A stretch of DNA of 64,000 bases from Phymorhynchus buccinoides (lineage: Eukaryota; Mollusca; Gastropoda; Neogastropoda; Raphitomidae): assembly GCA_017654935.2 (NCBI GenBank), contig CM065699.1:21253660-21317659 (forward strand), in the 5' to 3' direction. The translations under genes and the position numbers were made by a program. Shown here one piece after another: positions 910 through 46,990 of this stretch; position 1 is the stretch's first letter, and each line of letters starts with the position of its first letter. A model generated the notes under the pieces. The model was not told where the DNA came from, did not search any database, and saw nothing but the letters and a program-made list of their open reading frames with translations.

Positions 910-1060
910 CTGCTGCACGAGCGGCTGACGTCGAGCGACACGCGGCAGACGGCCTTCCTGGAGGCCCTGCAGAAGTCGGTGACCCAGACCCTCACCACCG
1001 GCGTCCACAGGTCCCTGGAATCCCTGGTCAGGACCGAGTTCAAGCAGAACGTCGCTCCAG
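910..1060 (+). CDS. EDC4: EDC4 internal exon (helical C-terminal region)
   Basis: This is an internal exon of enhancer of mRNA decapping 4, the P-body scaffold that couples DCP1 and DCP2. The 151-nt exon follows a cccaag acceptor and ends at CCAG|gtcagt in phase 1. It encodes about 50 residues beginning LLHERLTSS and containing SLESLVRTEFKQN, which resembles the helical segment of vertebrate EDC4 around LEGAVRAELKNT (recalled from family knowledge). Its last G joins TG of the exon at 3978 to restore a valine codon. The upstream polypyrimidine tract is modest. Upstream exons, including the WD40 part of EDC4, lie outside the window. High-GC codon use contrasts with the AT-rich introns. Confidence 0.85.
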
Positions 1061-3324: not shown

Positions 3325-4020
3325 GTGTGTTAATGTTGTAGTGATGACGCGGGCTGTGGACCAGATGAAGTCCCAGGTGCACTCAGACATGTGTTGTTAA
3401 TGTTGTTGTAGTGATGACACAGGCTGTGGACCAGATGAAGTCCCAGGTGCACACGGACATGTGTTAATGTTGTAGTGATGACGCGGGCTGTGGACCACAT
3501 GAAGTCCCAGGTGCACACGGACATGTGTTAATGTTGTTGTAGTGATGGCGCGGGCTGTGGACCAGATGAAGTCCCAGGTACACACAGACATGTGTTAATG
3601 TTGTTATAGTGATGACACGGGCTGTGGACCAGATGAAGTCCCAGGTACACACAGACATGTGTTGATGTTGTTGTAGTGATGACGCGGGCTGTGGACCAGA
3701 TGAAGTCTCAGGTGCGCACGGACATGTGTTGTTAATGTTGTTGTTGTTAATGTTGTTGTAGTGATGACGCGGGCTGTGGACCAGATGAAGTCCCAGGTAC
3801 ACACAGACATTTGTTGTTAATGTTGTTGTAGTGATGACACGGGCTGTGGACCAGATGAAGTCCCAGGTGCACACGGACATGTGTTGATGTTGTTGTAGTG
3901 ATGGCGCGGGCTGTGGACCAGATGAAGTCTCAGGTGCGCACGGACATGTGTTGTTAATGTTGTTGTTAATGTTGTAGTGATGACGCGGGCTGTGGACCAG
4001 ATGAAGTCCCAGGTACACAC
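3325..4020 (+). repeat. minisatellite built from an EDC4 splice acceptor (array 1)
   Basis: About ten units of 63-85 bp repeat the 3' intron end (tgttgttgtag) plus the first 45 or so exon bases (tgatgacgcgggctgtgg and onward). Acceptor-like positions precede about 3342, 3412, 3476, 3543, 3610, 3677, 3762, 3832 and 3899. The last unit is the real exon boundary at 3978. Only that unit continues into exon sequence and a donor. The long minus-strand open frames here are translations of the repeat. Confidence 0.9.
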
Positions 4021-4093
4021 AGACGTGTCACAGAAACTGGCTGCCATGGAGTCCGTGGTCAAAGATCAGATTGGAAAACTGGTCCGCTCGCGG
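3978..4093 (+). CDS. EDC4: EDC4 internal exon
   Basis: This 116-nt exon follows gttgtag and ends TCGCGG|gtgagt in phase 0. It contributes MTRAVDQMKSQVHTD, then VSQKLAAMESVVKDQIGKL, and ends VRSR. The stretch aligns well with the vertebrate EDC4 helix that runs QLSNSVATKLTAVEG (recalled). The first two bases complete the valine codon split with the exon ending at 1060, and the next exon starts in phase 0, so the chain is consistent. The odd feature is its 5' end: the first third of the exon plus its acceptor is repeated nine times upstream, which gives the splicing machinery many decoy acceptors. Confidence 0.9.
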
Positions 4094-4533
4094 GTGAGTT
4101 CAACTCGGCGAAGTGTGTGGGAAGTCATTTCCTATGGGGTGGTTTTTTTTGGTGTGTGATAGGTATGTATTTACAAGAAAATAAAGAACACAGTCGCCCA
4201 TATGTATGTATTTATAAATCTTTCTGTATTGAAATCCTTTCATTGTTAAAATCTTTCTTCAGGCATGGTAATGTTCAGAGAATTCTCTGAGTTCAAAGAA
4301 AAGTGAATGTAGAAAAACATGTCAGACGGGGGTTTTAAGCTTGAGGAGATGCCTTTTCCCCAATGTTTAACAGTTTTATGCAGTTGTCCTCAAAAGGAAT
4401 TGCTCCCTGATTACCACAAAGAGCTCTTTACCCATTGAAACCACCATGAAACAATGTCTCCTGAAACCTCTAAAAATGCTGTTCCTCCATTACCATGCCT
4501 GTTCTTAACTTGTAACAAATCTTTCTCAACTTG
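4094..4533. other. EDC4 intron, nothing recognised
   Basis: This is AT-rich intron sequence with no repeat or gene that I can identify. Confidence 0.6.
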
Positions 4534-5280
4534 TTAACCCTTTTGCCATCGATTTCGCATTTCTGTGCCAAACCACATTTATCATCCATGTCACTAAAAG
4601 GCATGAAATTAGGATCTGTTATCCGATGACCTTGTGTTAATATTGGGAGCAGGGGTCGCGCTAACGCATGTTTCTTGCGTATTTGACGCGTTTTAAAAAT
4701 TGCTGACGCATTTTTTTTACGGCGTTTACGCGTAATCCGTACGCAAAATGACGTCCGCTCGAAATCGCATCTGAGTCTAGATGGTGAATCAGACTTTAGA
4801 AGTCCTACGGTCCCTACACGTATAGTGGTTCTGCTACACCTAACATTGGAACAGACTATAGAAAAGTGCCACTGCTTTCAGTACTGCTGTGACGTAGGCG
4901 CAGTGCAGTGTGGCGGGAAAATCACTGTAAGCGCATTGGGGTGATAACAGGGCTTGTGTCGACTTAGAGGATCGCCGTGATCACCGAAAATGACTAGTTA
5001 GTGAATAAAAATGCATGTTTTTATTGCTAGTCTTGTTTTCATTGTTTTTAGCTTAGATTTATCATTTTGTTCTTTTACGCGATTTTTTGCTTCCCTTACG
5101 CATTTTTGGGGTAAGCAAAATGCGTTTTCAAAAACACTAGCGCGACCCCTGTGGGGAAATAAGAAAGGCCTTATTTGATGCATATCATAGGGGGATTCAC
5201 AGTATTGCAGACGCCAACTTGTATTTACCCAGAGAAGTTTGACAGATTTTTTGGGCAGTAATGGCTGGCGGGAAAAGGTC
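4534..5280. mobile_element. piggyBac-type TTAA MITE with nested element
   Basis: It begins ttaacccttttgccatcg and ends near gctggcgggaaaagg. It matches the families at 17998-18182 and 21651-21898, which carry TTAA at one or both ends. A second inverted-repeat element (4649-5151) is inserted inside it. Confidence 0.65.
4649..5151. mobile_element. inverted-repeat MITE with ends aggggtcgcgcta
   Basis: The left end is aggggtcgcgctaacgc and the right end is ctagcgcgacccct. The interior is rich in acgcg words and has no open frame of interest. It is nested in the TTAA element around it. Confidence 0.7.
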
Positions 5281-5612
5281 ACATTTCATTAATACTAAAT
5301 TTGAATACCATTAGACCAGAAAATAGTAGACAGTTGTGTCAGTGTTGTGTAGATTATTATGACATGTTTTTTCTCAGGCTCTCACCAAGTTTAAGTGCTT
5401 TCACTCTTTCTAGCGCCATGTATTTTTTGACGTTCTTGGTTGTCCGTTGCATCTTAACCGACAAGAGGGGAATAACTATGTTTTTTTCTGAACGCACATG
5501 CATTGCTTTAACGGAATAAACAATGACATAAGCTCTAAAAATAGACAAACACATGGCAGGGTACTTGGCAGTGTCTAGGCGAATGTATTCGCCCATGGTG
5601 CTAGAAAAGTTA

Positions 5613-5789
5613 AGGACCTGCTACGCTAGATATGATTCTGTGTCAATGTGATGCAATTCATGATTCACGTGAAATACTTCCGTCTATATGCTCAAGTAGA
5701 CCCAATACATGAATTTCACGTCAATCATGACTCGCATCATCACAATCACATCGCCATTGACACAGAATCGTATGTAATGTAGCAGACCC
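5613..5789. mobile_element. palindromic MITE
   Basis: The left arm (acctgctacgctagatatg, gattctgtgtcaatg) is matched by the right arm (cattgacacagaatcgta, then atgtagcagacccc). A central tcacgtgaaat/atttcacgt pair supports the palindrome. Confidence 0.7.
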
Positions 5790-5790
5790 C

Positions 5791-5994
5791 TAAGGCCGTG
5801 TACACACATAAGCGGATATTCCATGCGGAAACCCGTGCGCAATCCATAAGTAAGTGAAACAAAGAAGGGAAAAGATTTTGCGCACGTGTCCGAATTTCAC
5901 CTATATATATGCATAATCTTTTTATCCTTCTTTCTTCCACTTACTTAGGGTTTTCTGTACGGAACTTACGCGTCTAATGTGAACCCGGCCTTAA
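5791..5994. mobile_element. Harbinger-like MITE, copy 1 of 2
   Basis: Its termini are ggccgtgtacacacata and atgtgaacccggcc, imperfect inverted repeats next to TAA/TTA. A closely similar copy is at 57001-57207, where a TTA target duplication is visible. TWA duplications with GGC-type ends fit PIF/Harbinger elements (inference). Confidence 0.6.
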
Positions 5995-6096
5995 GGTTTA
6001 GATTACAGAAAAAGCTAGTTTTAGGGGTCTTTGCCCTCAGACAGACACTATGTTTTGAGCGTATTTTATGATTGCTTGACCTGCTGGCTGTTCCAG

Positions 6097-6262
6097 CAAA
6101 CGACGGAGGCTATAGGGCAGGCAACGAGCAGCGCGTTGCTCAACCAGGGTCAGGGGATGATGCGGGACCTGATGGACAACCGGCTGATCCCCTCCTTCAC
6201 CCTCACCACAGACAACATGCTCACACAGATCAACGCCATCTTCCAGCAGGGCACTCAGGAAT
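6097..6262 (+). CDS. EDC4: EDC4 internal exon
   Basis: This 166-nt exon lies between gctgttccag and GGAAT|gtacgt, phase 0 to phase 1. It encodes QTTEAIGQATSSALLNQGQ, a middle part with MMRDLMDNRLIPSF, and a closing MLTQINAIFQQGTQE. The closing motif matches the vertebrate EDC4 stretch around MFQQINDSFRLGTQEY (recalled). The split T joins AC of the next exon to give the conserved tyrosine after TQE, which supports both splice sites. The downstream intron starts with gtacgt, an acceptable but not optimal donor. Confidence 0.92.
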
Positions 6263-6317
6263 GTACGTTCTCCTACACTGCACCATCACCTCACATGCAG
6301 TGGGGGGCTCTGATGGA

Positions 6318-6408
6318 AGTTCTCCTCAGTCTGCATTATTGGCCTCCTCCCAATGGGGGAGGGACAGAACATATGCCTTGGTACAGGCCGATAATGCAGA
6401 CTGAGGAG
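6318..6408. mobile_element. short inverted-repeat element
   Basis: Left arm tctcctcagtctgcattatt and right arm gataatgcagactgaggaga enclose about 45 bp. The size suggests a small MITE or a deletion remnant. Confidence 0.55.
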
Positions 6409-6524
6409 ACCTTCACAGATCGAAACAGTTATCTTTGGTTTAAATACATTTTTATTCAGATCAACAGGGCACATATACATCAATACATTGTCAACATAAA
6501 TGAACGGCAACAAGCTTGAAGCTT

Positions 6525-6620
6525 ATAGTGTGACTGTGCTTGCTATCTACATGTATATTACATAAGCGCTTTGTGCTCGATAAAAAGCGCTTTATAAATA
6601 TCCGATTATTATTATTATGA
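6525..6620 (+). mobile_element. LINE-type 3' tail
   Basis: An aaaaagcgctttataaat motif is followed by an att-rich tail, like those at 765-866 and 33415-33497. Confidence 0.5.
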
Positions 6621-6982
6621 TTATTATATGACGACTGTCTTTGCAAAGGTTCTGTCCCTCCCCCAACCAAAGTTAATGATAACTGAGTTTGTTTCTGAGG
6701 TTCACAAATACAGACATTGGACACAAAAAGTGTTATCAAAGCAAAGTCTTCTGCATTTCAAATGCATCGTTTTTTCAGTCCTTGAGACTAAGGGAACAGT
6801 GTTAATAAGTCACTGAGATTTGTTCGTTCATACCATTATGCTACATAGATAGAAAACTTACTAGCTTCAGTAATCGGGAACCTTGCTTTGACACCAAGGA
6901 ATACAAGTTCTCCACTGCGAAACTATCAAAATTTGAATACTTTTGGGAAGAAACCGAGGAACAGGCACATGTTAATAAGATA

Positions 6983-7372
6983 CCGTAAAAACTGGACTAT
7001 AAGACGCACCTGTATATAAGCCGCATCCATTAATTTGACAAAATATTAGGTATTTATTCACACATAAGCCGCACCAGTTTATAAGCCGCAGAGAAAATTG
7101 CATGTGCACAAACCAACACAAATATAGAAATTCTATCAGAACATGAGTATTTAATGTTCTCAGACACTTTAAACATGAGATTTGAATCTATTGATTACCA
7201 AAACCAGTTTTGAGTCTAAAGAAGCTCAGAATAGGCTGAAGAATCTGGCCAGAAACAGATTTAATCATATTGATAAATGTAGAATGGAAACAAATCCATA
7301 GATCAGTCTATAAGCCGCATGGGTCAAAGTTGAGGGGAAAAGTAGCGGCTTATAGTCCGCATTTTACTGTAA
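6983..7372. mobile_element. inverted-repeat element (ccgtaaaaactggactata family)
   Basis: The left end is taccgtaaaaactggactat and the right end cggcttatagtccgcatttt followed by actgta. The interior repeats 'ataagccgca' words. The same family occurs at 1120-1957. Confidence 0.7.
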
Positions 7373-7409
7373 TATGTTTCTGTTTGATGTATGCTGGTTT
7401 TATCCACAG

Positions 7410-7596
7410 ACTTCAGCCACCTGCGGAAGCAGCTGGAGAAGGTTCGGCAGGAGCAGGACTCGGGGAGGGAGCCCCTGATCCAGCAGCTGAGCGGCCTGGT
7501 GACCACCTTCCAGCAGAAGAGCGAGCACCTCCATGAACAGCTGGCCCAGTCCATGAGGCACGAGATCAGTCACCAGATCAAAACGTCCCTTGGCAG
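7410..7596 (+). CDS. EDC4: EDC4 internal exon
   Basis: This 187-nt exon starts after ttttatccacag and ends CTTGGCAG|gtgggt, phase 1 to phase 2. It encodes YFSHLRKQLEKVRQEQ, then REPLIQQLSGLVTTFQQKS, and ends HEISHQIKTSLG. In vertebrate EDC4 the parallel stretch reads REPVLAQLRGLVSTLQ and EVQHQLHVAVGS (recalled). This is the predicted coiled-coil/helical scaffold region. The AG left at the end joins C of the exon at 10075 to encode serine. The donor and the last 12 exon bases are repeated about 21 times downstream, so more than 20 further donor-like sites follow the true one. Confidence 0.92.
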
Positions 7597-8638
7597 GTGG
7601 GTTTCCAATCTCTCAATACCTTGGAGTCAGAACGTCCCTTAGCAGGTGGATTTCCGATCTCTCGATGCCTTGGAGTCAGGACGTCCCTTGGCAGGTGAGT
7701 TTCCATTCTCTCAATACCTTGGAGTCAGAACGTCCTTTGGCAGGTGGGTTTCCAATCTCTCGATACCTTGGAGTCAGAACGTCCCTTGGCAGGTGGGTTT
7801 CCGATCTCTCGATGCCTTGGAGTCAGAACGTCCCTTGGCAGGTGGGTTTCCAATCTCTCAATACCTTGGAGTCAGAACGTCCCTTAGCAGGTGGATTTCC
7901 GATCTCTCGATGCCTTGGAGTCAGGACGTCCCTTGGCAGGTGGGTTTCCATTCTCTCGATACCTTGGAGTTAAAACTCCCTTGACAGGTGGGTTTCCAGT
8001 CTCTCGATACCTTGGAGTCAAAACACCCTTGGCAGGTGGGTTTCCAATCTCTCGATACCTTGGAGTCAAAACTCCCTTGACAGGTGGGTTTCCAATCTCT
8101 CGATGCCTTGGAGTCAAAACACCCTTGACAGGTGGGTTTCCAATCTCTCGATGCCTTGGAGTCAAAACACCCTTGACAGGTGGTTTTCCAATCTCTCGAT
8201 GCCTTGGAGTCAAAACACCCTTGACAGGTGGTTTTCCAATCTCTCGATGCCTTGGAGTCAAAACACCCTTGACAGGTGGGTTTCCAATCTCTCGATGCCT
8301 TGGAGTCAAAACACCCTTGACAGGTGGGTTTCCAATCTCTCGATGCCTTGGAGTTAAAACACCCTTGACAGGTGGGTTTCCAATCTCTCGATACCTTGGA
8401 GTCAAAACACCCTTGACAGGTGGGTTTCCAATCTCTCGATGCCTTGGAGTCAAAACACCCTTGACAGGTGGGTTTCCAATCTCTCGATGCCTTGGAGTCA
8501 AATCACCCTTGACAGGTGGGTTTCCAATCTCTCGATGCCTTGGAGTCAAAACACCCTTGACAGGTGGGTTTCCAATCTCTCGATACCTTGGAGTCAAATC
8601 ACCCTTGACAGGTGGTTTTCCAATCTCTCGATGCCTTG
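7585..8638 (+). repeat. 49-bp minisatellite built from an EDC4 splice donor (array 2)
   Basis: About 21 head-to-tail units of 49 bp start at 7585, 7634, 7683 and so on. Each repeats the exon end (gtcccttggcag) and its donor (gtgggtttcc), then atctctcgatgccttggagt. The donor dinucleotide context cag|gt is retained in nearly all units, while the exon part drifts from gtcccttggcag to acccttgacag. The unit length is not a multiple of three, so use of a later donor shifts the frame. Long open frames through the array on both strands are repeat translations. Confidence 0.95.
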
Positions 8639-8863
8639 AATTTCTCAGAGACGCCTCTGTGACTATAAAGTACCTGAATACCTAATCTCTGTGTCCCCCC
8701 CTCTCTCATTTATTTGTTTCTGCTTTGGTTGTATTGTTTGCTTTGTTGCTCTTTTGTTTTATTTTTGTTTTTTCAGTAAAAGACTTACGTTGTGTTTGCT
8801 TTTAAGAATACAAAATGTATCAGTTTTCAACTGCAGACCTTAAAATTACCTTATTTTTCGTAC

Positions 8864-9468
8864 TACAGTGAAACCTCCCGTTATAAGACTCCCTCCCTCA
8901 TAAGACCTACTTCTCTGAGACATTGCAGTTCTTTGTAAGTATTTTAAAATTACCTCCCTTATAAGACCTCATCATATAGTAAAAAGCCAAGTGTCCGTGT
9001 GGGTGTCTGTCTGTTTGTCTGTCTGTCTGTCTGAAACACAAAACGGGCCTTATAACTCCGCCGTTTTTCGACCGAATCGCTTCAAATTTGCTGTGAGCCC
9101 TAACGGGGCGATGGCAACGGCAACCGAGGCGGCCGTGTCATTTGCGCGGTTCGGCAAACGCGCATCCGCCGGCCTCTCGGCGCCCGTATCTCCGATGTTT
9201 CTGGACCGATTGCCTTCGCATTTGGCAGGAAGATGACCGGGGACGGTGACTATCCGTGTACCAAACCGGAAGCGAATCGGTTCAGAAACGCGCGCACTAT
9301 ACGACTCCGCTGTTTCTTAACCGAATCGCTTCAAATTTGCTGTACTCAGCGTTACCAGTACTTGGCGTTACCGTTACTAGGCGTTACCGTTACTAGGCGT
9401 TACTGGTACTCGGCGTTGCGCTAGTTTGAGATGATTTTTGAAGGTCTTATAAGGGATGTTCCACTGTA
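8864..9468. mobile_element. palindromic MITE (acagtgaaacctcc family), interrupted
   Basis: The left end tacagtgaaacctcccgtta and the right end aagggatgttccactgta define the element. Its loop is split by the GC-rich segment at about 8975-9429. Confidence 0.65.
8975..9429. mobile_element. GC-rich insertion of unknown class
   Basis: This segment begins near atagtaaaaagccaagtgtc, with a tctg run at 9006-9032, and contains two copies of a cgaatcgcttcaaatttgct word (about 9073 and 9321). It ends in repeated ggcgttac words (9353-9418). Its GC content is visibly higher than the surrounding intron. No inverted repeats are clear, and a Helitron-like origin is possible but unproven. Confidence 0.45.
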
Positions 9469-9607
9469 TAAGGCGCACCCACCAATTTCAACACAAAACT
9501 CAGGTATTGTTATATTTTCTGACTATATTATCAATCATGTTATAAGGCGCAGTGGTCTGAATCAGGGGTAAACATATCGCCTTATAGTCCGAACAATGCA
9601 GTACTGT
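9462..9607. mobile_element. inverted-repeat element remnant
   Basis: The ends tataaggcgcacccacc and cgccttatagtccgaac followed by agtactgta resemble the family at 6983-7372 in shortened form. Confidence 0.5.
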
Positions 9608-9637
9608 ATTCAAGACTTCAAATGAATATTCTGAAAC

Positions 9638-9710
9638 ACAGTGCCAACCTCCCTATTAAGCCCTGAAGTTTTGAATGATTTTTCAAGTCTTGATAGGGAG
9701 GTTCTACTGT
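9638..9710. mobile_element. minimal palindromic MITE
   Basis: acagtgccaacctccctatt and gatagggaggttctactgt pair over about 20 bp each. It is the shortest family member here. Confidence 0.65.
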
Positions 9711-9711
9711 T

Positions 9712-9880
9712 GTTGTTGTTGTCATTCCCTGGCTTAAAGACTCCAGGGATCATCCCAACAGCTGAAGCACTTGAGCACTATGGTACAAATGCACTCAACT
9801 AGGGATGAGAACATTACGTGTGTGACCGTTTTTGACTGCCCCGCCATGTGGGCAGCCACACTCCGACTTTGGAGGATTTT
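9712..9880 (+). repeat. dispersed repeat, copy 2 of 2
   Basis: It is similar to 356-522 in the same orientation, starting with cattccctggcttaaagact. It starts directly after the palindromic MITE. Confidence 0.7.
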
Positions 9881-10074
9881 GGACTGGTGATGTTATGCTA
9901 GGAGCTTGCCATGGCTGAAGACAATCCCCGCATAACCATGCAGAACATAGCAACATTTTGATGTAGCCTTGGCGTTCTAGCTTATGTCAACTAGTCTGAC
10001 ACAGCCTTAGAGCTATGCCAAGGCGTGGTTCTACTGTAACTAGTGACGTTCATGGTGTGCCTTTTGCTGTCCAG

Positions 10075-10306
10075 CTTCCAGGAGCAGCTGACGTCCACCC
10101 TGCGGGCGACGGTCCGCGACGAGGTGGGCTCTGCGCTGAGGGAGCAGGGCAACAAGATGACAGACAGCCTGGCCACCTACCTGCGCTCCGGGGCGGCCAC
10201 CCCCGTGCCCTCGGCCCACACCCCCGACGTCAACAGCCTGCAGGCCATGCAGGAGCAGGTCCGACAGCTGGTCAGCCGTGGGATGCTGGACAGGGCCTTC
10301 CAGATG
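10075..10306 (+). CDS. EDC4: EDC4 internal exon
   Basis: This 232-nt exon follows cttttgctgtccag and ends TTCCAGATG|gtcagt, phase 2 to phase 0. It encodes FQEQLTSTLRATVRDEVGSA, the well-conserved SGAATPVPSAHTPD motif, and ends QVRQLVSRGMLDRAFQM. Vertebrate EDC4 carries AAGTPVPSAHLD at the same place (recalled), followed by a helical repeat ending in NQAFQQ. This is the entry to the conserved C-terminal alpha-helical domain thought to mediate P-body targeting and oligomerisation. Its last 45 or so bases with the donor are repeated about nine more times in the downstream intron. Confidence 0.93.
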
Positions 10307-10680
10307 GTCAGTGAGGCTGTGTTGGGGGTCCTGGGGTGTTTGAACTAGTGCCGTTAGTGGTCAGTCGCGGTGTGCTGGACAGGGCCTTCCAGATGGTCAG
10401 TGAGGCTGTGTTGTGGGGCTTGGTGGGTCCTGGGGTGTTTGAACTAGTGGTCAGCCGCAGGATGCTGGACAGGGCCTTCCAGATGGTCAGTGGGGCTTGG
10501 TGGGTCCTGGGGTGTTTGAACTAGTGGTCAGCCACGGGATGCTGGACAGGGCCTTCCAGATGGTCAGTGGGGCTGTGTTGTGGGGCTTGGTGGGTCCTGG
10601 GGTGTTTGAACTAGTGGTCAGTCGTAGGGTGCTGGACAGGGCCTTCCAGATGGTCAGTGAGGTTGTGTGGTGGGTCCTGG
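10262..10680 (+). repeat. minisatellite built from an EDC4 splice donor (array 3, left part)
   Basis: Five units of about 77-91 bp repeat exon sequence (agccgcgggatgctggaca, gggccttccagatg), the donor gtcagtgagg and about 45 intron bases. The first unit is the true exon end. The array is split by the insertion at 10681-11059 and continues at 11060-11520. Confidence 0.93.
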
Positions 10681-11059
10681 TGTAACAGTGTGTGCAGCAG
10701 TCAGTCATACTGGAGACAATGCTGTGGGTTCGATGATCTCGCTCTCTTTATTACTTTCAAGTTTCAAGGAGCAGGGGCATGGGCAATGGAATCGGAAAAG
10801 GGAAATCAGGGATGGGGATGGAGGGTAGCAATGGCAAATGATCATCCAGGGAAAGGAAGTAACTCTTGTTTGTGAAGAGTAAGAAAGGATCTTCCAACAG
10901 GAAACTAAACTTTAACTTCAACAAGGGAAATAATCCTAAGTTAATCATGCTTGGTCCTAGTCCACAAATATTAAAACAAAGTAAAACATCATTTCCTACA
11001 ATCTAGTTTCTATTATATTCCCAAATCTCCAAATCCTGTCTAATACCTACTCTACCACA
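10681..11059 (+). mobile_element. solo-LTR-like insertion
   Basis: This 379-bp segment starts tgtaacagtg and ends ctaccaca. It interrupts a minisatellite whose unit otherwise reads continuously. The flanking ctgg at 10677-10680 and 11060-11063 fits a 4-bp target duplication. TG...CA ends with a short duplication fit a solo LTR. It has no inner coding region. A TATA-like ctctttatta lies at about 10744. Confidence 0.55.
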
Positions 11060-11520
11060 CTGGGGTGTTTGAACTAGTGCTATTAGTGGTCAGCCGCGGG
11101 GTGCTGGACAGGGCCTTCCAGATGGTCAGTGAGGCTGTGTTGAGGGGCTTGGTGGGTCCTGGGGTGTTTGAACTAGTGGTCAGCCGCGGGGTGCTGGACA
11201 GGGCCTTCCATATGGTCAGTGAGGCTGTGTTGAGGGACTTGGTGGGTCCTGGCGTGTTTGAACTAGTGGTCAGCCGCGGGGTGCTGGACAGGGCCTTCCA
11301 GATGGTCAGTGAGGCTGTGTTGTGGGGCTTGGTGGGTCCTGGGGTGTTTGAACTAGTGGTCAGTCGCGGGATGCTGGACAGGGCCTTCCAGATGGTCAGT
11401 GAGGCTCTGTGTTGTGGGGCTTGGTGGGTCCTGGGGTGTTTGAACTAGTGGTCAGTCGCGGGATGCTGGACAGGGCCTTCCAGATGGTCAGTGAGGCCGT
11501 GTTGTGGGGCTTGGTGGGTT
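11060..11520 (+). repeat. minisatellite built from an EDC4 splice donor (array 3, right part)
   Basis: Five further units have gctggaca words near 11102, 11192, 11282, 11372 and 11463, giving a period of 90-91 bp. Each keeps ccagatg|gtcagt apart from one t substitution. The array passes directly into array 4 at about 11520. Confidence 0.93.
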
Positions 11521-12914
11521 CAATGTATTTGTACGTGTCTGAATGTGTGCAGGCATTTGAGTAAACAGCCCTGTGCTTCAATGTATTTGTATGTGTCTGA
11601 ATGTGTGCAGGCATTTGAGTAAACAGCCCTGTGCTTCAATGTATTTGTATGTGTCTGAATGTGTGCAGGCATTTGAGTAAACAGCCCTGTGCTTCAATGT
11701 ATTTGTATGTGTCTGAATGTGTGCAGGCATTTGAGTAAACAGCCCTGGGTTTCAATGTATTTGTATGTGTGCTGGCATTTGAGTAAACAGTCCTGTGTTT
11801 CAATGTATTTGTATGTGTTTTGATTTTGTGCAGGCATTTGAGTAAAGAGCCTAGTGTTTCAATGTATGTGTGTGTGTCTTGATTTTGTGCAGGCATTTGA
11901 GTAAAGAGCCTAGTGTTTCAATGTATTTGTATGTCTGGATGTGTGCGGCATTTGATTAAAGGGCCTAGTGTTTCAATGTATTTGTATGGCTGGATGTGTG
12001 CGGCATTTGAGTAAAGAGCCTAGTGTTTCAATGTATTTGTATGTCTGGATGTGTGCGGCATTTGAGTAAAGAGCCTAGTGTTTGAATGTATTTGTGTGTG
12101 TCTTGATTTTGTGCAGGCATTTGAGTAAAGAGCCTAGTGTTTCAATGTATTTGTATGTCTGGATGTGTGCGGCATTTGATTAAAGGGCCTAGTGCTTCAA
12201 TGTATTTGTATGTGTTGATTTTGTGCAGGCATTTGAGTAAACAGCTGTGGGTTTCAGTATGTGTATGTGTTGATTTTGTGCAGGCATTTGAGTAAAGAGC
12301 CCTGTGTTTCAATGTGTCTGGATGTGCAGGCATTTGAGTAAAGAGCCCTGTGTTTCAATGTGTCTGGATGTGCAGGCATTTGAGTAAAGAGCCCTGTGTT
12401 TCAATGTATTTGGATGTGTCTGGATGTGCAGGCATTTGAGTAAAGAGCCCTGTGTTTCAATGTGTCTGGATGTGCAGGCATTTGAGTAAAGAGCCCTGTG
12501 TTTCAATGTATTTGGATGTGTCTGGATGTGCAGGCATTTGAGTAAAGAGCCCTGTGTTTCAATGTGTCTGGATGTGCAGGCATTTGAGTAAAGAGCCCTG
12601 TGTTTCAATGTATTTGGATGTGTCTGGATGTGCAGGCATTTGAGTAAAGAGCCCTGGGTTTCAATGTATTTGGATGTGTCTGGATGTGCAGGCATTTGAG
12701 TAAAGAGCCCTGGGTTTCAATGTATTTGGATGTGTCTGGATGTGCAGGCATTTGAGTAAAGAGCCCTGGGTTTCAATGTATTTGGATGTGTCTGGATGTG
12801 CAGGCATTTGAGTAAAGAGCCCTGGGTTTCAATGTATTTGGATGTGTCTGGATGTGCAGGCATTTGAGTAAAGAGCCCTGGGTTTCAGTATTTGTATGTG
12901 TTGATTGTGTGCAG
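11520..12914 (+). repeat. minisatellite built from an EDC4 splice acceptor (array 4)
   Basis: About 25 units of 46-62 bp repeat an acceptor-like tgtgtgcag|gcatttgagt with flanks. The first units have a 58-bp period. Later ones alternate 46 and 57 bp as a higher-order repeat. The terminal unit leads to the true acceptor tgtgtgcag|GCATTG at 12914/12915. Minus-strand open frames here are repeat translations. Confidence 0.93.
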
Positions 12915-13078
12915 GCATTGTCTGCCTCCAATCTGGACCTGACGCTGTTTGTGTGTGAGCTGGTGGACCGTGCAGAGGTGTTTGGCTCCTCCCCCTGCCC
13001 CCTCAGTCAGCCCGTGCTGCTGTCGCTCATCCAGCAGCTGTCCGCAGACATCTCCTACTCCTTCAACACCAAAATAGG
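12915..13078 (+). CDS. EDC4: EDC4 penultimate (or near-terminal) exon
   Basis: This 164-nt exon starts after gattgtgtgcag in phase 0 and ends AAAATAGG|gtcagt in phase 2. It encodes ALSASNLDLTLFVCELVDRA, then EVFGSSPCPLSQPVLLSLIQ, then QLSADISYSFNTKI. The CPLSQPVLLSLIQQL stretch is essentially identical to vertebrate EDC4 (recalled), making this the strongest identification in the window. Family proteins continue for roughly 80-100 residues in a helical tail after this point. That tail is not seen before or after the assembly gap. Confidence 0.96.
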
Positions 13079-13500: not shown

Positions 13501-14000
13501 NNNNNNNNNNNNNNNNNNNNNNNNNNNNNNNNNNNNNNNNNNNNNNNNNNNNNNNNNNNNNNNNNNNNNNNNNNNNNNNNNNNNNNNNNNNNNNNNNNNN
13601 NNNNNNNNNNNNNNNNNNNNNNNNNNNNNNNNNNNNNNNNNNNNNNNNNNNNNNNNNNNNNNNNNNNNNNNNNNNNNNNNNNNNNNNNNNNNNNNNNNNN
13701 NNNNNNNNNNNNNNNNNNNNNNNNNNNNNNNNNNNNNNNNNNNNNNNNNNNNNNNNNNNNNNNNNNNNNNNNNNNNNNNNNNNNNNNNNNNNNNNNNNNN
13801 NNNNNNNNNNNNNNNNNNNNNNNNNNNNNNNNNNNNNNNNNNNNNNNNNNNNNNNNNNNNNNNNNNNNNNNNNNNNNNNNNNNNNNNNNNNNNNNNNNNN
13901 NNNNNNNNNNNNNNNNNNNNNNNNNNNNNNNNNNNNNNNNNNNNNNNNNNNNNNNNNNNNNNNNNNNNNNNNNNNNNNNNNNNNNNNNNNNNNNNNNNNN
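13501..14000. other. assembly gap (500 N)
   Basis: A run of exactly 500 undetermined bases, probably a placeholder of unknown true size. It lies where the last EDC4 exon would be expected. The open frames that run through it are artefacts. Confidence 0.99.
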
Positions 14001-14596: not shown

Positions 14597-16757
14597 CAAC
14601 AACAACAACAACAACAACAACATACAGTATTTATACGGCGCTGAATCTTGATAGAAATCAAATCAAAGCGCACACACACGTTAGCATTCAAAGCGCATTC
14701 AAACAAAAACGCAATACAAAGCGAACACACACGGATAACATAAATGGAATATAGCAGAAACAGACCTAATGGCAAGAGAGAGAAGATAAAGAGAGAGGAG
14801 CTTTAATGACGGGGGAACAGGTGGGTTTTGAGGTTAGCTTTGAAAGCAGAGAGGAGTCGGTCGCTGACGGAGGGAGAGAGGAAGTTTGTTCCAGGAGGTC
14901 GGTCCTGAGACAGTAAAAGAGCGCCGACCAACAGTTGAAAGCTTATACCTAGGGATCTGGAGAGAAAGAGGGTCAGAAACTGAACGTAAAGTGCGAGCTG
15001 GCGTATAGATGGAAATATTGTCGCAGAGGTAAGATGGAGCAGCTTTATTAGGGTTAGAGTTAGGGTTAGGGTGATTTATAGCAAAGTGTGTTTAATTTAT
15101 ACTCAATTCTGTCTGCGACAGGAAGCCAGTGCAAAGAACGCAGAAGAGGGCTAACATGATCGAACTTTTTCTTCCTAAGGACAAGACGAGCAGCTGTGTT
15201 TTGAATACGCTGGAGACCAGATAGAGAAGAGACTGATAGGCCAGAAAGGAGAGCATTACAGTAGTCAATACGAGATAGGATGAGGGAAGTAACAAGCTTT
15301 GCTGTGGCTTCATCTGAGAGGTATTTACGAATATAGCCAATGCAACGAATTTGATAGTAGCAGGACTGACAGGTCTGAGTCAGGAAACTCTGCATGGAAA
15401 GAGTATTGTCCAAAGTGACACCTAAGTTTTTGACAGAGTCTGAGAGGGGAATGATATTGCTACCCAGTTGGATTGACTCTATGGAAACAGAGGCTAGTTT
15501 GTTTTTTGTCCCTACAAGCAGTGCTTCGGTTTTTTCACCATTTAATTGAAGTTTATTTGGAACCATCCAATTTTGAATATCAACATAGCAGTTGTTACTT
15601 TCTGTAAGAATGGAATCTAGATCTTCAGGGGTTGTACTGTTTTGGAGTTGTGAGTCATCTGCATAGAAGTGATGTTTCATGTTGTGCTGGTCGATGACAT
15701 TGGCAAGAGGTGACGTATACAAAGTAAACAAGACAGGACCAAGCACAGACCCCTGGGGGACTCCACAAGAAAGCCTAACCTGTTCAGACTGACGACCATT
15801 GACCAGAACTGATTGAAAACGATCAGAAAGGTAAGAGGAAAACCAAGAAAGAGCAGGGCCCTTAATTCCAAAAGTATGTTCAAGACGAGACAGAAGAATG
15901 GAGTGGTCTATGGTATCAAAGGCAGCAGAGAGATCAAGAAGTGTCAAAAGAGAGATTTGACCAGCATCAGAAGCAAGTAAGAGGTCATTGACGATTTGAA
16001 CAAGGGCTGTTTCAGTACTGTGGTTGGTTCTATAGGCAGACTGATAAGGATGATGAAGATTGTTTGAGGATAGATGATCGTTAAGTTGTTTCAGAACAGT
16101 CTTCTCAAGGAGTTTGGAGAGAAAAGGGAGGTTAGATACAGGTCTGTAGTTTTTCAGATTATTAGGATCCAGATTGTTCTTCTTGAGAAGGGGCCTTACA
16201 AGAGCGGCTTTGAAAGCAGAAGGAAACACACCTGAAACTAAAGAAGAATTGATGATGTTGGTGATTGATGGCAGAAGGTGTTGATAGATTTGTGAGAAAA
16301 GAGAGGCTGGGATGGGGTCAAGATCACAGGATTTAAAATGCATTTCTTTCAAAGTAGAAAGAACTTCGGTCTCAGACACCGGCTTGAAAGAGAGAAGGGG
16401 GACACCAGTGAATGATGGGTCTGGAATAGTTGGTTGAAAAGGCATGGAGTCGATGTTTGATCGTAGATCGATAATCTTGGTAGAGAAGAAGGAGGAAAAG
16501 GTTTCTGGCAGTTTGTCAGGACTGATATTTGATGGCAGAGGACTTGATTTCTTGTTGCCTAGGAGATCAGACATGGTGGAGAACAGGACCTTTGTTGTGT
16601 TGGCTTCAAGAATTTTAGATGAAAAATAGCTTGTTTTTGCCTTGGCCAGAAGAAGAGTGAAGATGTTACGGAGAAACTGATGTATCTGACGATGTATTTC
16701 TAGTTTTGAGTCCCGCCACTGACGCTCAGCCTTACGACTAATGCGTTTACTTACTGT
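14597..16757 (-). mobile_element. 5'-truncated non-LTR retrotransposon with reverse transcriptase
   Basis: The minus-strand frame from about 16757 to 15066 encodes most of a LINE reverse transcriptase. Recognisable motifs in order are KNYRPVSNLPFLSKLLEK, YQSAYRTNHSTETALV, LLDLSAAFDTIDHSIL, GVPQGSVLGPVLFTLY, the catalytic FYADDSQ and IDYCNALLSGL. The frame is broken near 15065 by a telomere-like ccctaa insertion. It resumes with APSYLCD and PARTLRSVSDPL and ends at about 14800. A 3' UTR ends in tgtatg plus a ttg-repeat tail at 14597-14622. The endonuclease domain is missing, since the 5' side stops in (CA)n. The style resembles CR1/Rex-type elements. It is dead as a mobile element. Confidence 0.88.
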
Positions 16758-16760
16758 AAG

Positions 16761-16764
<4 letters not shown>

Positions 16765-16855
<91 letters not shown>

Positions 16856-16882
16856 ACACGCGCACGCACACACACGCACGCA

Positions 16883-16924
<42 letters not shown>

Positions 16925-16996
16925 GCACGCACGCACGCACCGCACGCACACGCACACGCACGCGCACACGTGCAAATGCAATCGTACGACTATCCA

Positions 16997-17037
<41 letters not shown>

Positions 17038-17065
17038 ACACACACACACACTCGCACACACACCG
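16765..17065. repeat. compound (CA)n microsatellite
   Basis: Pure ca runs are mixed with cgca and cacg variants. A short word, tgcaaatgcaatcgtacgac, occurs inside it and again at 17139, suggesting a local duplication. Confidence 0.95.
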
Positions 17066-17539
17066 CTATCGTGTTTCCACACTTAAGAGGTGTTTAAGTG
17101 TCTAAGTTGTAAGGACACCTAAGGAGCCGACCCACACGTGCAAATGCAATCGTACGACTATCCAACTGTGACAGTCGTGATGGGGGGGTCTTTCGCACAA
17201 ATAGTTCCCCCACCTTCTGGAAGTTTTGTGCTTGTAACTTCCTCTAATCCATCACTCTCTTTGACTCTGCCTTTTCTCTTTGCTGACTGTCATCTGCTAT
17301 CTTTCTATCTTACTGTGGTCCATTCTCCAGGCTTATTTTCTCTCTATTAATTCTTACAAAGATTTTCTTCAGCCGAAGTCGGACATGCTGGGCCTAACTA
17401 TTTCTTAGTTAGGCGCATAACGGCAGCATGACGCATCTAACGCTCACATGACAGGAAACTGTTTGAGCGAACGAAGAAGAAGAAGAAGAAGAAGAATACT
17501 TATAAGGCCTGTTACCCACCGGTTTGATTCTCTTCAATT

Positions 17540-45711: not shown

Positions 45712-46990
45712 TATACTACTGGCAAAAAGTTAAGGTCCAGCTCTCATTTTGATGTCCCTTCTTGTTATTGTAATTAATAGACCTGAAACAAATTAACAAT
45801 TACCCAAACCCTGTTACAAACATTGACCAGACACACCTCAATGGATGCACAACACCAAACAACCCAATGCTTTACAAGATGGGGTTCAGCTGCACGTACC
45901 AAAAGCATGAAAAATCTGCAATCTGTGTGGCTGTGGTAGCAAATGTGTTTGAAAAAAGGGCGAAGTGTCCATGTTGGTTCATGATGCACGTGCAAGGCAC
46001 GTATAAGATGAACACATTTCAGCCGTCTTTGGCTATAAATCAGTAGACTGAATAGCCTTTCAAGCCAGTTCAAAAAGCATGGCTCATATGCAAATACTGG
46101 ATACTGCAAATCGTGGACGCGCCTCAGTTAGCGTTGATTGACGAGGGGATTTCTGGCCGCGAGGTTGCCAGGCGTCTCAACGTGTCTCACTCCGTTATCC
46201 AACGTCTCTTAGAGAGGTTCCAGGCAACTGGAAGTGTACAGGATCGGTTACGACCAGGCCGTCCTCGGTGTACCAACAGACAGGATGACCGATTCCTCAT
46301 GCTGTCCGCCCTACGCAATCGGACCGTCACCTCATCCACCCTGAGGCGTGAGCTCATGTAGGCTTCGAACGTCAATGTCAGCAGAAGGACAGTTTGCAAC
46401 CGTTTGCACGAGTTCTCGCTGTCTTCCCGGAGACCAGCAGTCCGAGTACCCCTAACTCCAGGTCACCGCAGAGCCCGTGCAGACAGGACGTGTCGTGGAC
46501 GATTATCTACAGCAACAGGGGATCATCAGGATGCAGTGGCCATCTCGTTCACCCGATCTGGCTCCAATTGAGCACCTTTGGGATGTCCTTGGCCGGAGGG
46601 TAGCCAACAACCACCCCCCTCCTGTTGACGTGGCCCAGCTCATTCTTTTCCTTCAGCAGGAGTGGCAGGTCATACCGCAGGACACTCTACGGACCCTGGT
46701 GGACTCCATGCGTCGACGCTGCGCTGAATGCCTGGCAGCAAACGGTGGCCACACGCGGTACAGAGTGGTGTAGTTTTCACCGGTGGCTTTTGTGACTTTG
46801 CTGAAGGAGGGTGACTGGACATTAAAGCTCACTGTTCGCGTCCGAATTGTTGATTTCGTTCAATGTTGAAATGAATTTGTTGTTGAATAAATTTTGATCA
46901 TTCTGAAACAGGTTTTCTTGAAATTTGCTGTGGTGTTGTGGTCTGGGAGACGTCATTGGAAGTGGCCCTTAACTTTTTGCCAGTAGTATA
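45712..46990 (+). mobile_element. Tc1/mariner-like element with deleted catalytic core
   Basis: 27-bp terminal inverted repeats (tactactggcaaaaagttaa and ttaactttttgccagtagta), with TA edges, match at all but one position. The plus strand encodes a paired-like helix-turn-helix start (DEGISGREVARRLNVSHSVI, then QRLLERFQATGSVQDRLRPG). After frame breaks it encodes the transposase end (SPDLAPIEHLWDVLGRRV, then ECLAANGGHTRYRVV). The middle of the protein with the first two catalytic aspartates is missing; the E region of the DDE triad remains. The element is nonautonomous, about 1.28 kb. Confidence 0.9.

What the first reader, a model, noticed from the sequence alone, without database searches (positions are those of the whole stretch)
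3325..12914. Four independent minisatellites, each grown from an EDC4 splice junction
Every EDC4 intron minisatellite here abuts an exon and has a unit that spans that exon's own splice site: acceptor at 3325-4020, donor at 7585-8638, donor at 10262-11520, acceptor at 11520-12914. In each case the outermost unit is the working site and the rest are decoys that keep the ag or gt. Unit lengths and sequences differ (about 70, 49, 91 and 46-58 bp), so the arrays arose separately. Four out of four at boundaries is unlikely by chance and suggests that exon-intron boundaries seed tandem duplication, or that arrays elsewhere are removed. I know of no described system of this kind.
Basis: partly seen in the sequence, partly recalled or inferred. 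Interest (0 to 1): 0.88.

Follow-up and report, generated by a model that had tools for sequence, protein, structure and literature searches.

The report
Snail minisatellites grown from splice junctions
In this snail genome, short stretches that straddle the boundary between an exon and an intron are often copied in tandem, so that spare splice sites stand in the introns; this was seen first in one gene and then at about a quarter of the exon edges sampled in other genes.

Summary
All four arrays exist; each unit spans the splice site of the neighbouring EDC4 exon, and the outermost copy is the working one. Ortholog proteins show no gap at the joins they cover, and all 64 inner copies would bring an early stop codon.

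More of the same genome turned up two further junction arrays in EDC4 and three in the neighbouring HAD-phosphatase gene. I then tested 50 exons chosen before seeing their flanks. Junction-derived tandem copies (often only two, in short windows) stand at 16 of 80 kinesin edges and 7 of 20 chaperonin (CCT) edges, on 14 contigs. In the first 20 windows a seed-placement null gave a mean of 1.7 clusters against 8 junction-derived ones (P 7e-5); a harsher null gave P = 0.011.

Single-gene precedents exist (human IFI6; repeats at exon-intron boundaries of human duplicated genes), so the kind is known. The prevalence appears new.

Best reading: tandem duplications that include exon sequence are frequent. 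Those wholly inside exons are purged; those straddling a splice site survive because splicing removes the extra copies. Some decoys have lost their site, so a decoy function is unlikely. RNA use and other species' DNA could not be tested.

The parts
910..1060 (+). EDC4 exon E1 (working exon; 5' edge uncertain by a codon or two)
   Evidence: in-frame joined ORF with canonical sites; ortholog alignment
3326..4028 (+). Array A1: acceptor-spanning minisatellite, 10 copies, spacing 64-85 bp (about 50 nt of E2 start plus intron end); working acceptor is the last copy (exon starts 3978)
3978..4093 (+). EDC4 exon E2
6097..6262 (+). EDC4 exon E3 (no arrays at its edges)
7410..7596 (+). EDC4 exon E4
7578..8638 (+). 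Array A2: donor-spanning minisatellite, 22 copies, spacing 48-49 bp (about 19 nt of E4 end plus about 29 nt of intron); working donor is the first copy (intron starts 7597)
10075..10306 (+). EDC4 exon E5
10269..11519 (+). Array A3: donor-spanning minisatellite, 10 copies, spacing mostly 90 bp (38 nt of E5 end plus about 52 nt of intron); working donor first (intron starts 10307)
10681..11060 (.). unrelated insert inside array A3, edges approximate (probable transposable element, not identified)
   Evidence: gap between the TRF blocks ending 10682 and starting 11084 and reading
11519..12919 (+). Array A4: acceptor-spanning minisatellite, 26 copies, spacing 46-60 bp (intron end plus about 5 nt of E6); working acceptor is the last copy (exon starts 12915); directly abuts A3
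12915..13078 (+). EDC4 exon E6

Best explanation
These are splicing-shielded junction minisatellites, one outcome of a genome-wide process in this snail. (1) Stretches of roughly 50-200 bp that contain about 5-110 nt of an exon edge together with the adjoining intron are duplicated in tandem. (2) Duplications wholly inside structured exons are removed by selection. Those straddling a splice site survive because the spliceosome keeps using the outermost site, and every further copy is removed with the intron. (3) Once two copies exist, unequal exchange or slippage can make arrays of up to 26 copies that lengthen the intron from its ends. (4) The inner sites are by-products: some have decayed, and their use would end translation. 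Step 1 is shown as a pattern; its molecular cause is inferred, perhaps slippage or repair at exon edges and the low-complexity tracts of splice sites. Step 2's protein outcome is shown by frames and orthologs; the RNA is not. Step 3 is inferred from copy relationships. Step 4 rests on sequence.
For: Working site outermost: one open frame and no gap at the joins covered by orthologs. Decoys are dead ends: an early stop follows for 64 of 64 decoys in A1-A4 and 26 of 26 pattern-matched decoys in A5, A7, A8 and A9; A6 was not tested. Genome-wide: 16 of 80 kinesin exon edges and 7 of 20 CCT edges carry junction-derived tandem copies, at donors and acceptors. In the first 20 kinesin windows, 9 of 16 array clusters touch an exon edge, 8 of them with junction-derived copies (the ninth, L039, only abuts). 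The seed null has a mean of 1.7; in 200,000 runs P is 7e-5 for 8 or more and 5e-6 for 9 or more. Two of the other 7 clusters are junction arrays of neighbouring exons. Background: 7 clusters in 60 kb of flanking sequence that I did not search for genes. EDC4 exons also hold short arrays in multiples of three (27 bp x 5.0, 42 bp x 2.1). The copies nearest the exon in A2 repeat in a five-unit period that includes the working copy (7597 and 7842 differ at one position), so the functional copy takes part in turnover. Array donors have GC-richer intron starts than others (0.60 vs 0.48 over 28 nt, 6 vs 20 donors, p 0.02).
Against: No RNA data: that the outermost site is used is inferred. The harsher null, whole clusters dropped into 2-kb exon-centred windows, gives only P = 0.011. 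The sampled edges are not independent: several exons come from one gene, and two array-bearing donors (L029, L030) are paralogous. About half of the 23 edges show only about two copies, in windows cut 200-250 bp from the exon. Units with only 5-10 nt of exon (A4, A6) fit poorly with exon sequence as the driver. GC of the last 40 exon nt does not differ between array and non-array donors (0.57 vs 0.56). No other mollusc genome could be searched as DNA.
Confidence: 0.6

Rival explanations
1. Persistence, not birth: duplications arise evenly, but at junctions one copy is held constant by selection and keeps re-seeding and homogenising the array, so junction arrays last longer than intronic ones.
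For: The working copy takes part in turnover in A2. Working copies are 75-98% identical to an inner copy, median 88%, in the 26 of 32 cases that could be aligned.
Against: The excess over random placement is large (8 junction-derived clusters against 1.7 expected). Many junction cases show only two or three copies, so long persistence of big arrays is not the whole story.
Confidence: 0.2
2. The decoys are selected for: they regulate splicing or mRNA dosage through nonsense-mediated decay, or buffer the true site.
For: All decoys of A1-A3 keep their dinucleotide; every decoy tested leads to a stop codon; arrays sit in conserved genes.
Against: 5 of 25 A4 decoys lost the AG. The inner copy of L050, one of three in A8 and one in L029 lost the donor GT; in L035 the inner copies lack the original donor, though another GT stands nearby. 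No shared motif or unit length was seen by eye.
Confidence: 0.1
3. Coincidence in a gene picked out because it was striking.
For: The window was chosen after the fact.
Against: Out-of-sample: 2 of 4 further EDC4 intron arrays (P 0.02-0.04), 3 arrays in the next gene, 16 of 80 and 7 of 20 edges in genes chosen without regard to arrays.
Confidence: 0.04
4. Assembly or polishing artefact at exon edges (for instance RNA-guided scaffolding).
For: Draft-like features: a 500-N gap at 13501-14000 and contigs of exactly 25,000, 30,000 or 50,000 bases.
Against: Working copies differ by about 2-25% from an inner copy, arrays reach 26 copies, and the Nucella lapillus predicted EDC4 carries a duplicated exon start.
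Confidence: 0.04

Closest known systems
Human IFI6 (6-16, G1P3) minisatellite of splice donor sites (Turri et al. 1995; only the title seen, in the reference lists of PMC4526556 and PMC2572611; the paper is not held)
   Same: A minisatellite whose repeat unit supplies multiple splice donor sites in a transcript.
   Different: In IFI6 two downstream repeat units are used as donors and give three mRNA species (passage in PMC4526556). Here every alternative site tested brings a stop, both donors and acceptors are involved, and the pattern recurs across the genome.
Internal tandem repeats at exon-intron boundaries in human segmental-duplication genes (De Grassi and Ciccarelli 2009, PMC2812944; outline and the Results section read)
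   Same: Minisatellite-sized repeats (mean unit 30 bp) at exon-intron boundaries: 162 alignments before curation, 27 intron modifications after.
   Different: Restricted to recent human paralogs and to copy-number differences; the Results make no claim that junctions nucleate arrays or that a large share of exon edges carries them.
Intron gain by tandem genomic duplication of an AGGT-bearing segment (e.g. PMC4974935; listing and abstract start seen)
   Same: Local tandem duplication that carries splice signals; several units here also hold AG|GT.
   Different: Here the duplication lies at the edge of an existing intron and lengthens it; the protein is unchanged and no new intron is shown.
Ordinary intronic minisatellites (general knowledge)
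   Same: Tandem units of tens of bases that grow and homogenise.
   Different: The unit includes exon sequence and the working splice site.

Membership tests
Splice-site minisatellite (IFI6 type) | Tandem repeat unit contains a real splice site of the host gene | tested here: met
   A1-A4 units align across the working site; frames and orthologs fix the site
Splice-site minisatellite (IFI6 type) | Several repeat copies are used as splice sites in mRNA | not testable with these tools
   No RNA data; productive use is unlikely because 90 of 90 decoys tested give an early stop
Minisatellite | Head-to-tail units of about 10-100 bp or somewhat more, several copies, copies similar but not identical | tested here: met
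   Main TRF rows for the four arrays: periods 48-134 bp, 4.8-21.9 copies, 77-95% matches
Intron gain by tandem genomic duplication | A new intron arises between two copies of a duplicated exonic segment | tested here: inconclusive
   No gap against orthologs at the joins, but intron positions in other species could not be read
   16 of 80 kinesin and 7 of 20 CCT edges; nulls; a sample, not a full scan

The most novel reading that the evidence does not exclude
This lineage has a distinct mutational process that nucleates tandem duplication at splice junctions, donor and acceptor alike. About one exon edge in four carries copies, introns grow from their ends (the intron between E5 and E6 consists of two abutting arrays plus one insert), and spliceosomes must pick one true site beside up to 25 near-identical decoys.
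Probability: 0.5. Interest if true: 0.9.

Novelty: new variant of a known kind. Interest (0 to 1): 0.8.

Why it matters
If about a quarter of exon edges in a genome carry tandem copies of their own splice site, three questions become testable: how introns lengthen, whether exon-intron boundaries are mutation hotspots, and how splicing chooses among many near-identical sites in cis. The arrays are natural experiments on the outermost-site (exon-definition) rule. They would also mislead gene predictors, as the Nucella EDC4 model seems to show.

Tried and rejected
Decoy function: weakened by decoys that lost GT or AG. Decoys as a source of protein variants: rejected, since 90 of 90 introduce stops. 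In the first frame run I used a next-exon start one base off for A7 and A9, so even the working copy showed a stop; one search corrects this. G-runs in the intron start as the cause: weak (G fraction p 0.09, G-runs p 0.04, GC over 60 nt p 0.001 but partly circular because inner copies bring exon sequence; GC over 28 nt p 0.02). An automated measure of unit length and exon share failed for 6 of 32 cases, often returned a multiple of the unit, and returned the same pair of copies for both edges of L029 and of L070; I use only its exon-part and identity ranges. A self-BLAST of the Nucella protein listed only the whole-length self match; the duplication was seen by eye and then confirmed by aligning the two segments (24 of 33 identical, E 4e-12).

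Rows dropped before counts. Of 127 kinesin hits I fetched 40, skipping near-identical copies, hits with stops inside, some hits in very long open frames (283-582 aa) and some further exons of genes already taken. Of 54 CCT hits I fetched 10, skipping near-copies, hits with stops inside and most hits in very long open frames; one such hit (frame 475 aa, L066) was taken and has arrays. L062 (one 30-bp copy) and L039 (repeat abuts the donor, no exon part) were not counted as junction arrays. Ten paper searches showed no report of splice-junction minisatellites at a large share of a genome's exon edges; only an open-licence library was searched.
Full report
Check of the observation. The window holds six exons of EDC4 (enhancer of mRNA decapping 4) that join into one 338-aa open frame with GT-AG introns. 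The identity rests on PF21289 (E 2.5e-23), PDB 2vxg and 20 protein hits. They contain 10, 22, 10 and 26 pattern-matched copies of the splice-site region. In 7 orthologs no gap falls at any of the five exon joins, though P0004 has a 4-residue gap four residues before the first. Of 5 gastropod proteins, three cover all five joins without a gap, among them P0022, an unnamed record whose 1437-aa frame fills a 4473-base contig; the Batillaria and Pomacea models lack the first exon. So the working site is the copy that touches the exon body.

Decoys. Extending the exon to any inner donor, or starting it at any inner acceptor, brings an early stop in 64 of 64 cases in A1-A4. Donor and acceptor dinucleotides are kept in 9 of 9, 21 of 21, 9 of 9 and 20 of 25 decoys of A1-A4. 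The intron between E5 and E6 consists of A3 (with one insert) directly followed by A4. In A2 the copies nearest the exon repeat with a five-unit period that includes the working copy.

Out-of-sample, same gene. I fetched 80 kb upstream and found 13 further exons, some with approximate edges, and two more junction arrays. A5 (126 bp x 4.9, five copies, 121-129 bp apart) spans the donor of the exon ending ...SPDAFTVSTT. A6 (66 bp x 8.9) ends in a degenerate copy that crosses the next acceptor (local score 54 against a maximum of 21 in 200 shuffles). Two large arrays in EDC4 introns span no junction (125 bp x 5.3, ending about 62 bp before an acceptor, and 42 bp x 22). Two short arrays in multiples of three lie inside exons (27 bp x 5.0, 42 bp x 2.1). 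With 19 exons and 36 internal junctions found (a lower bound), 6 of 8 intronic arrays span a junction: P 7e-7 by seed placement and 1.5e-5 by whole-array placement. For the four arrays outside the finding, 2 of 4, P 0.023 and 0.043.

Next gene. A further 80 kb holds a gene with two HAD-phosphatase domains (PF00702, E 8e-18 and 5e-13). Three of its donors carry arrays: A7 (16 pattern-matched copies), A8 (4) and A9 (5). Reading frame continues from the outermost donor into the next exon in each case, and 26 of 26 decoys in A5, A7, A8 and A9 give stops. In the 244 kb as a whole, arrays with period at least 40 and at least 2.8 copies number 15 after merging; 8 span a junction (TRF rows, classified by reading). 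A8 falls below that threshold.

Genome-wide sample. A Pfam search for kinesin motors in the same genome (2.12 Gb, 3962 contigs) gave 127 exon hits. I fetched 20 exons with 900-bp flanks and 20 with 250-bp flanks, chosen from the hit list before seeing any flank. By TRF, self-alignment and reading, junction-derived tandem copies stand at 8 of 40 edges in the first set (L026, L028, L029 both edges, L030, L033, L035, L042) and 8 of 40 in the second (L047, L048, L050, L054, L057, L058, L061, L064). Two more lie at neighbouring exons inside the first windows and are not in these counts. For the chaperonin family PF00118 (54 hits) 10 exons were fetched with 200-bp flanks: 7 of 20 edges carry such copies (L066 both edges, L069, L070 both edges, L071, L073). 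Total 23 of 100 edges, on 14 contigs. About half show only about two copies, a lower bound because the windows are short. Not all edges are independent.

Controls. In the first kinesin windows 9 of 16 clusters touch an exon edge; one of the 9 (L039) only abuts it. Placing each unit at random gave a mean of 1.7 and never 9 in 20,000 runs; in 200,000 runs P is 7e-5 for 8 or more and 5e-6 for 9 or more. Placing whole clusters under exon constraints gave P 0.011. Sixty kb flanking the studied region, run through TRF but not searched for genes, has 7 clusters. In the first kinesin set only one other cluster (L044) ends within 150 bp of an exon edge without touching it. Exon sequence in the unit therefore seems to matter, not mere nearness to an exon.

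Mechanism. Shown: units span the junction, the outermost copy is the working one by frame and homology, decoys tested are dead ends and some have lost their site, and the pattern is widespread. Inferred: a high rate of tandem duplication involving exon edges, removal of wholly exonic duplications by selection, and tolerance at junctions because splicing removes the extra copies. Array donors have GC-richer intron starts (0.60 against 0.48 over 28 nt, 6 against 20 donors, p 0.02). The sample is small and the exon ends do not differ. A junction-centred break or slippage process fits as well; differential persistence is the main rival.

Other species. The closest EDC4 proteins with a name are from neogastropods (Babylonia areolata 67%, Nucella lapillus 63%), so the source is probably a related snail; no tool named it. 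The Nucella model contains its exon start twice (24 of 33 residues identical, E 4e-12), separated by about 35 residues that look intronic, at the acceptor where this genome has A6. That is one hint that the process is not confined to this species.

What is known. A minisatellite that supplies splice donors in human IFI6 (Turri 1995, title only) and tandem repeats at exon-intron boundaries in human duplicated genes (PMC2812944) make each single array a known kind. Ten searches of an open-licence library showed no account of such arrays at a large share of a genome's splice junctions (call numbers in Tried and rejected).

Noticed in passing
window 13501-14000: 500-N assembly gap soon after EDC4 exon E6; a search of the window for a few C-terminal EDC4 motifs recalled from memory found nothing, so the last exon or exons may lie in the gap.
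   Followed up: partly
C20:21121838-21123493 (L016): In array A7, 15 inner copies have gained a C/T-rich tract and CAG just before the exon-derived part, making pseudo-exons of about 37-38 nt with plausible acceptor and donor.
   Followed up: partly
C20:21121671 to about 21140864 (L016-L014): The frame runs on from two HAD-phosphatase domains towards a GMC oxidoreductase (PF00732): one splice join was checked by frame, the next only by reading. A HAD-HAD-GMC fusion gene is possible (Pfam).
   Followed up: no
P0023 (Nucella lapillus EDC4 model), residues about 611-712: Duplicated exon start in a predicted protein, probably a mis-annotated junction duplication.
   Followed up: partly
G000 C27:30848853 and C27:30851499, C3552:19065 (CCT exon hits): Chaperonin exons reported inside open frames of 956 and 1012 aa, perhaps in-frame junction arrays without stops; L066, from a 475-aa frame, is such a case.
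   Followed up: partly
window 15066-17093 (-) and 46056-46773 (+): Reverse-transcriptase-like ORF and transposase-like ORFs, by look of the translations only.
   Followed up: no
C20:21113406-21113758 (L017-L016): Array of about six copies whose unit reads like a strong acceptor (..TTTTCTTTTACTTCAG|AGATC..), possibly a 5'-UTR exon edge; not counted as a junction array.
   Followed up: no
C20:21155927-21156230 (L012): 103-bp x 2.9 array starting within about 10 bp of the acceptor of an amino-acid-permease-like exon on the minus strand, with no exon sequence seen in the unit (permease by weak Pfam match).
   Followed up: no
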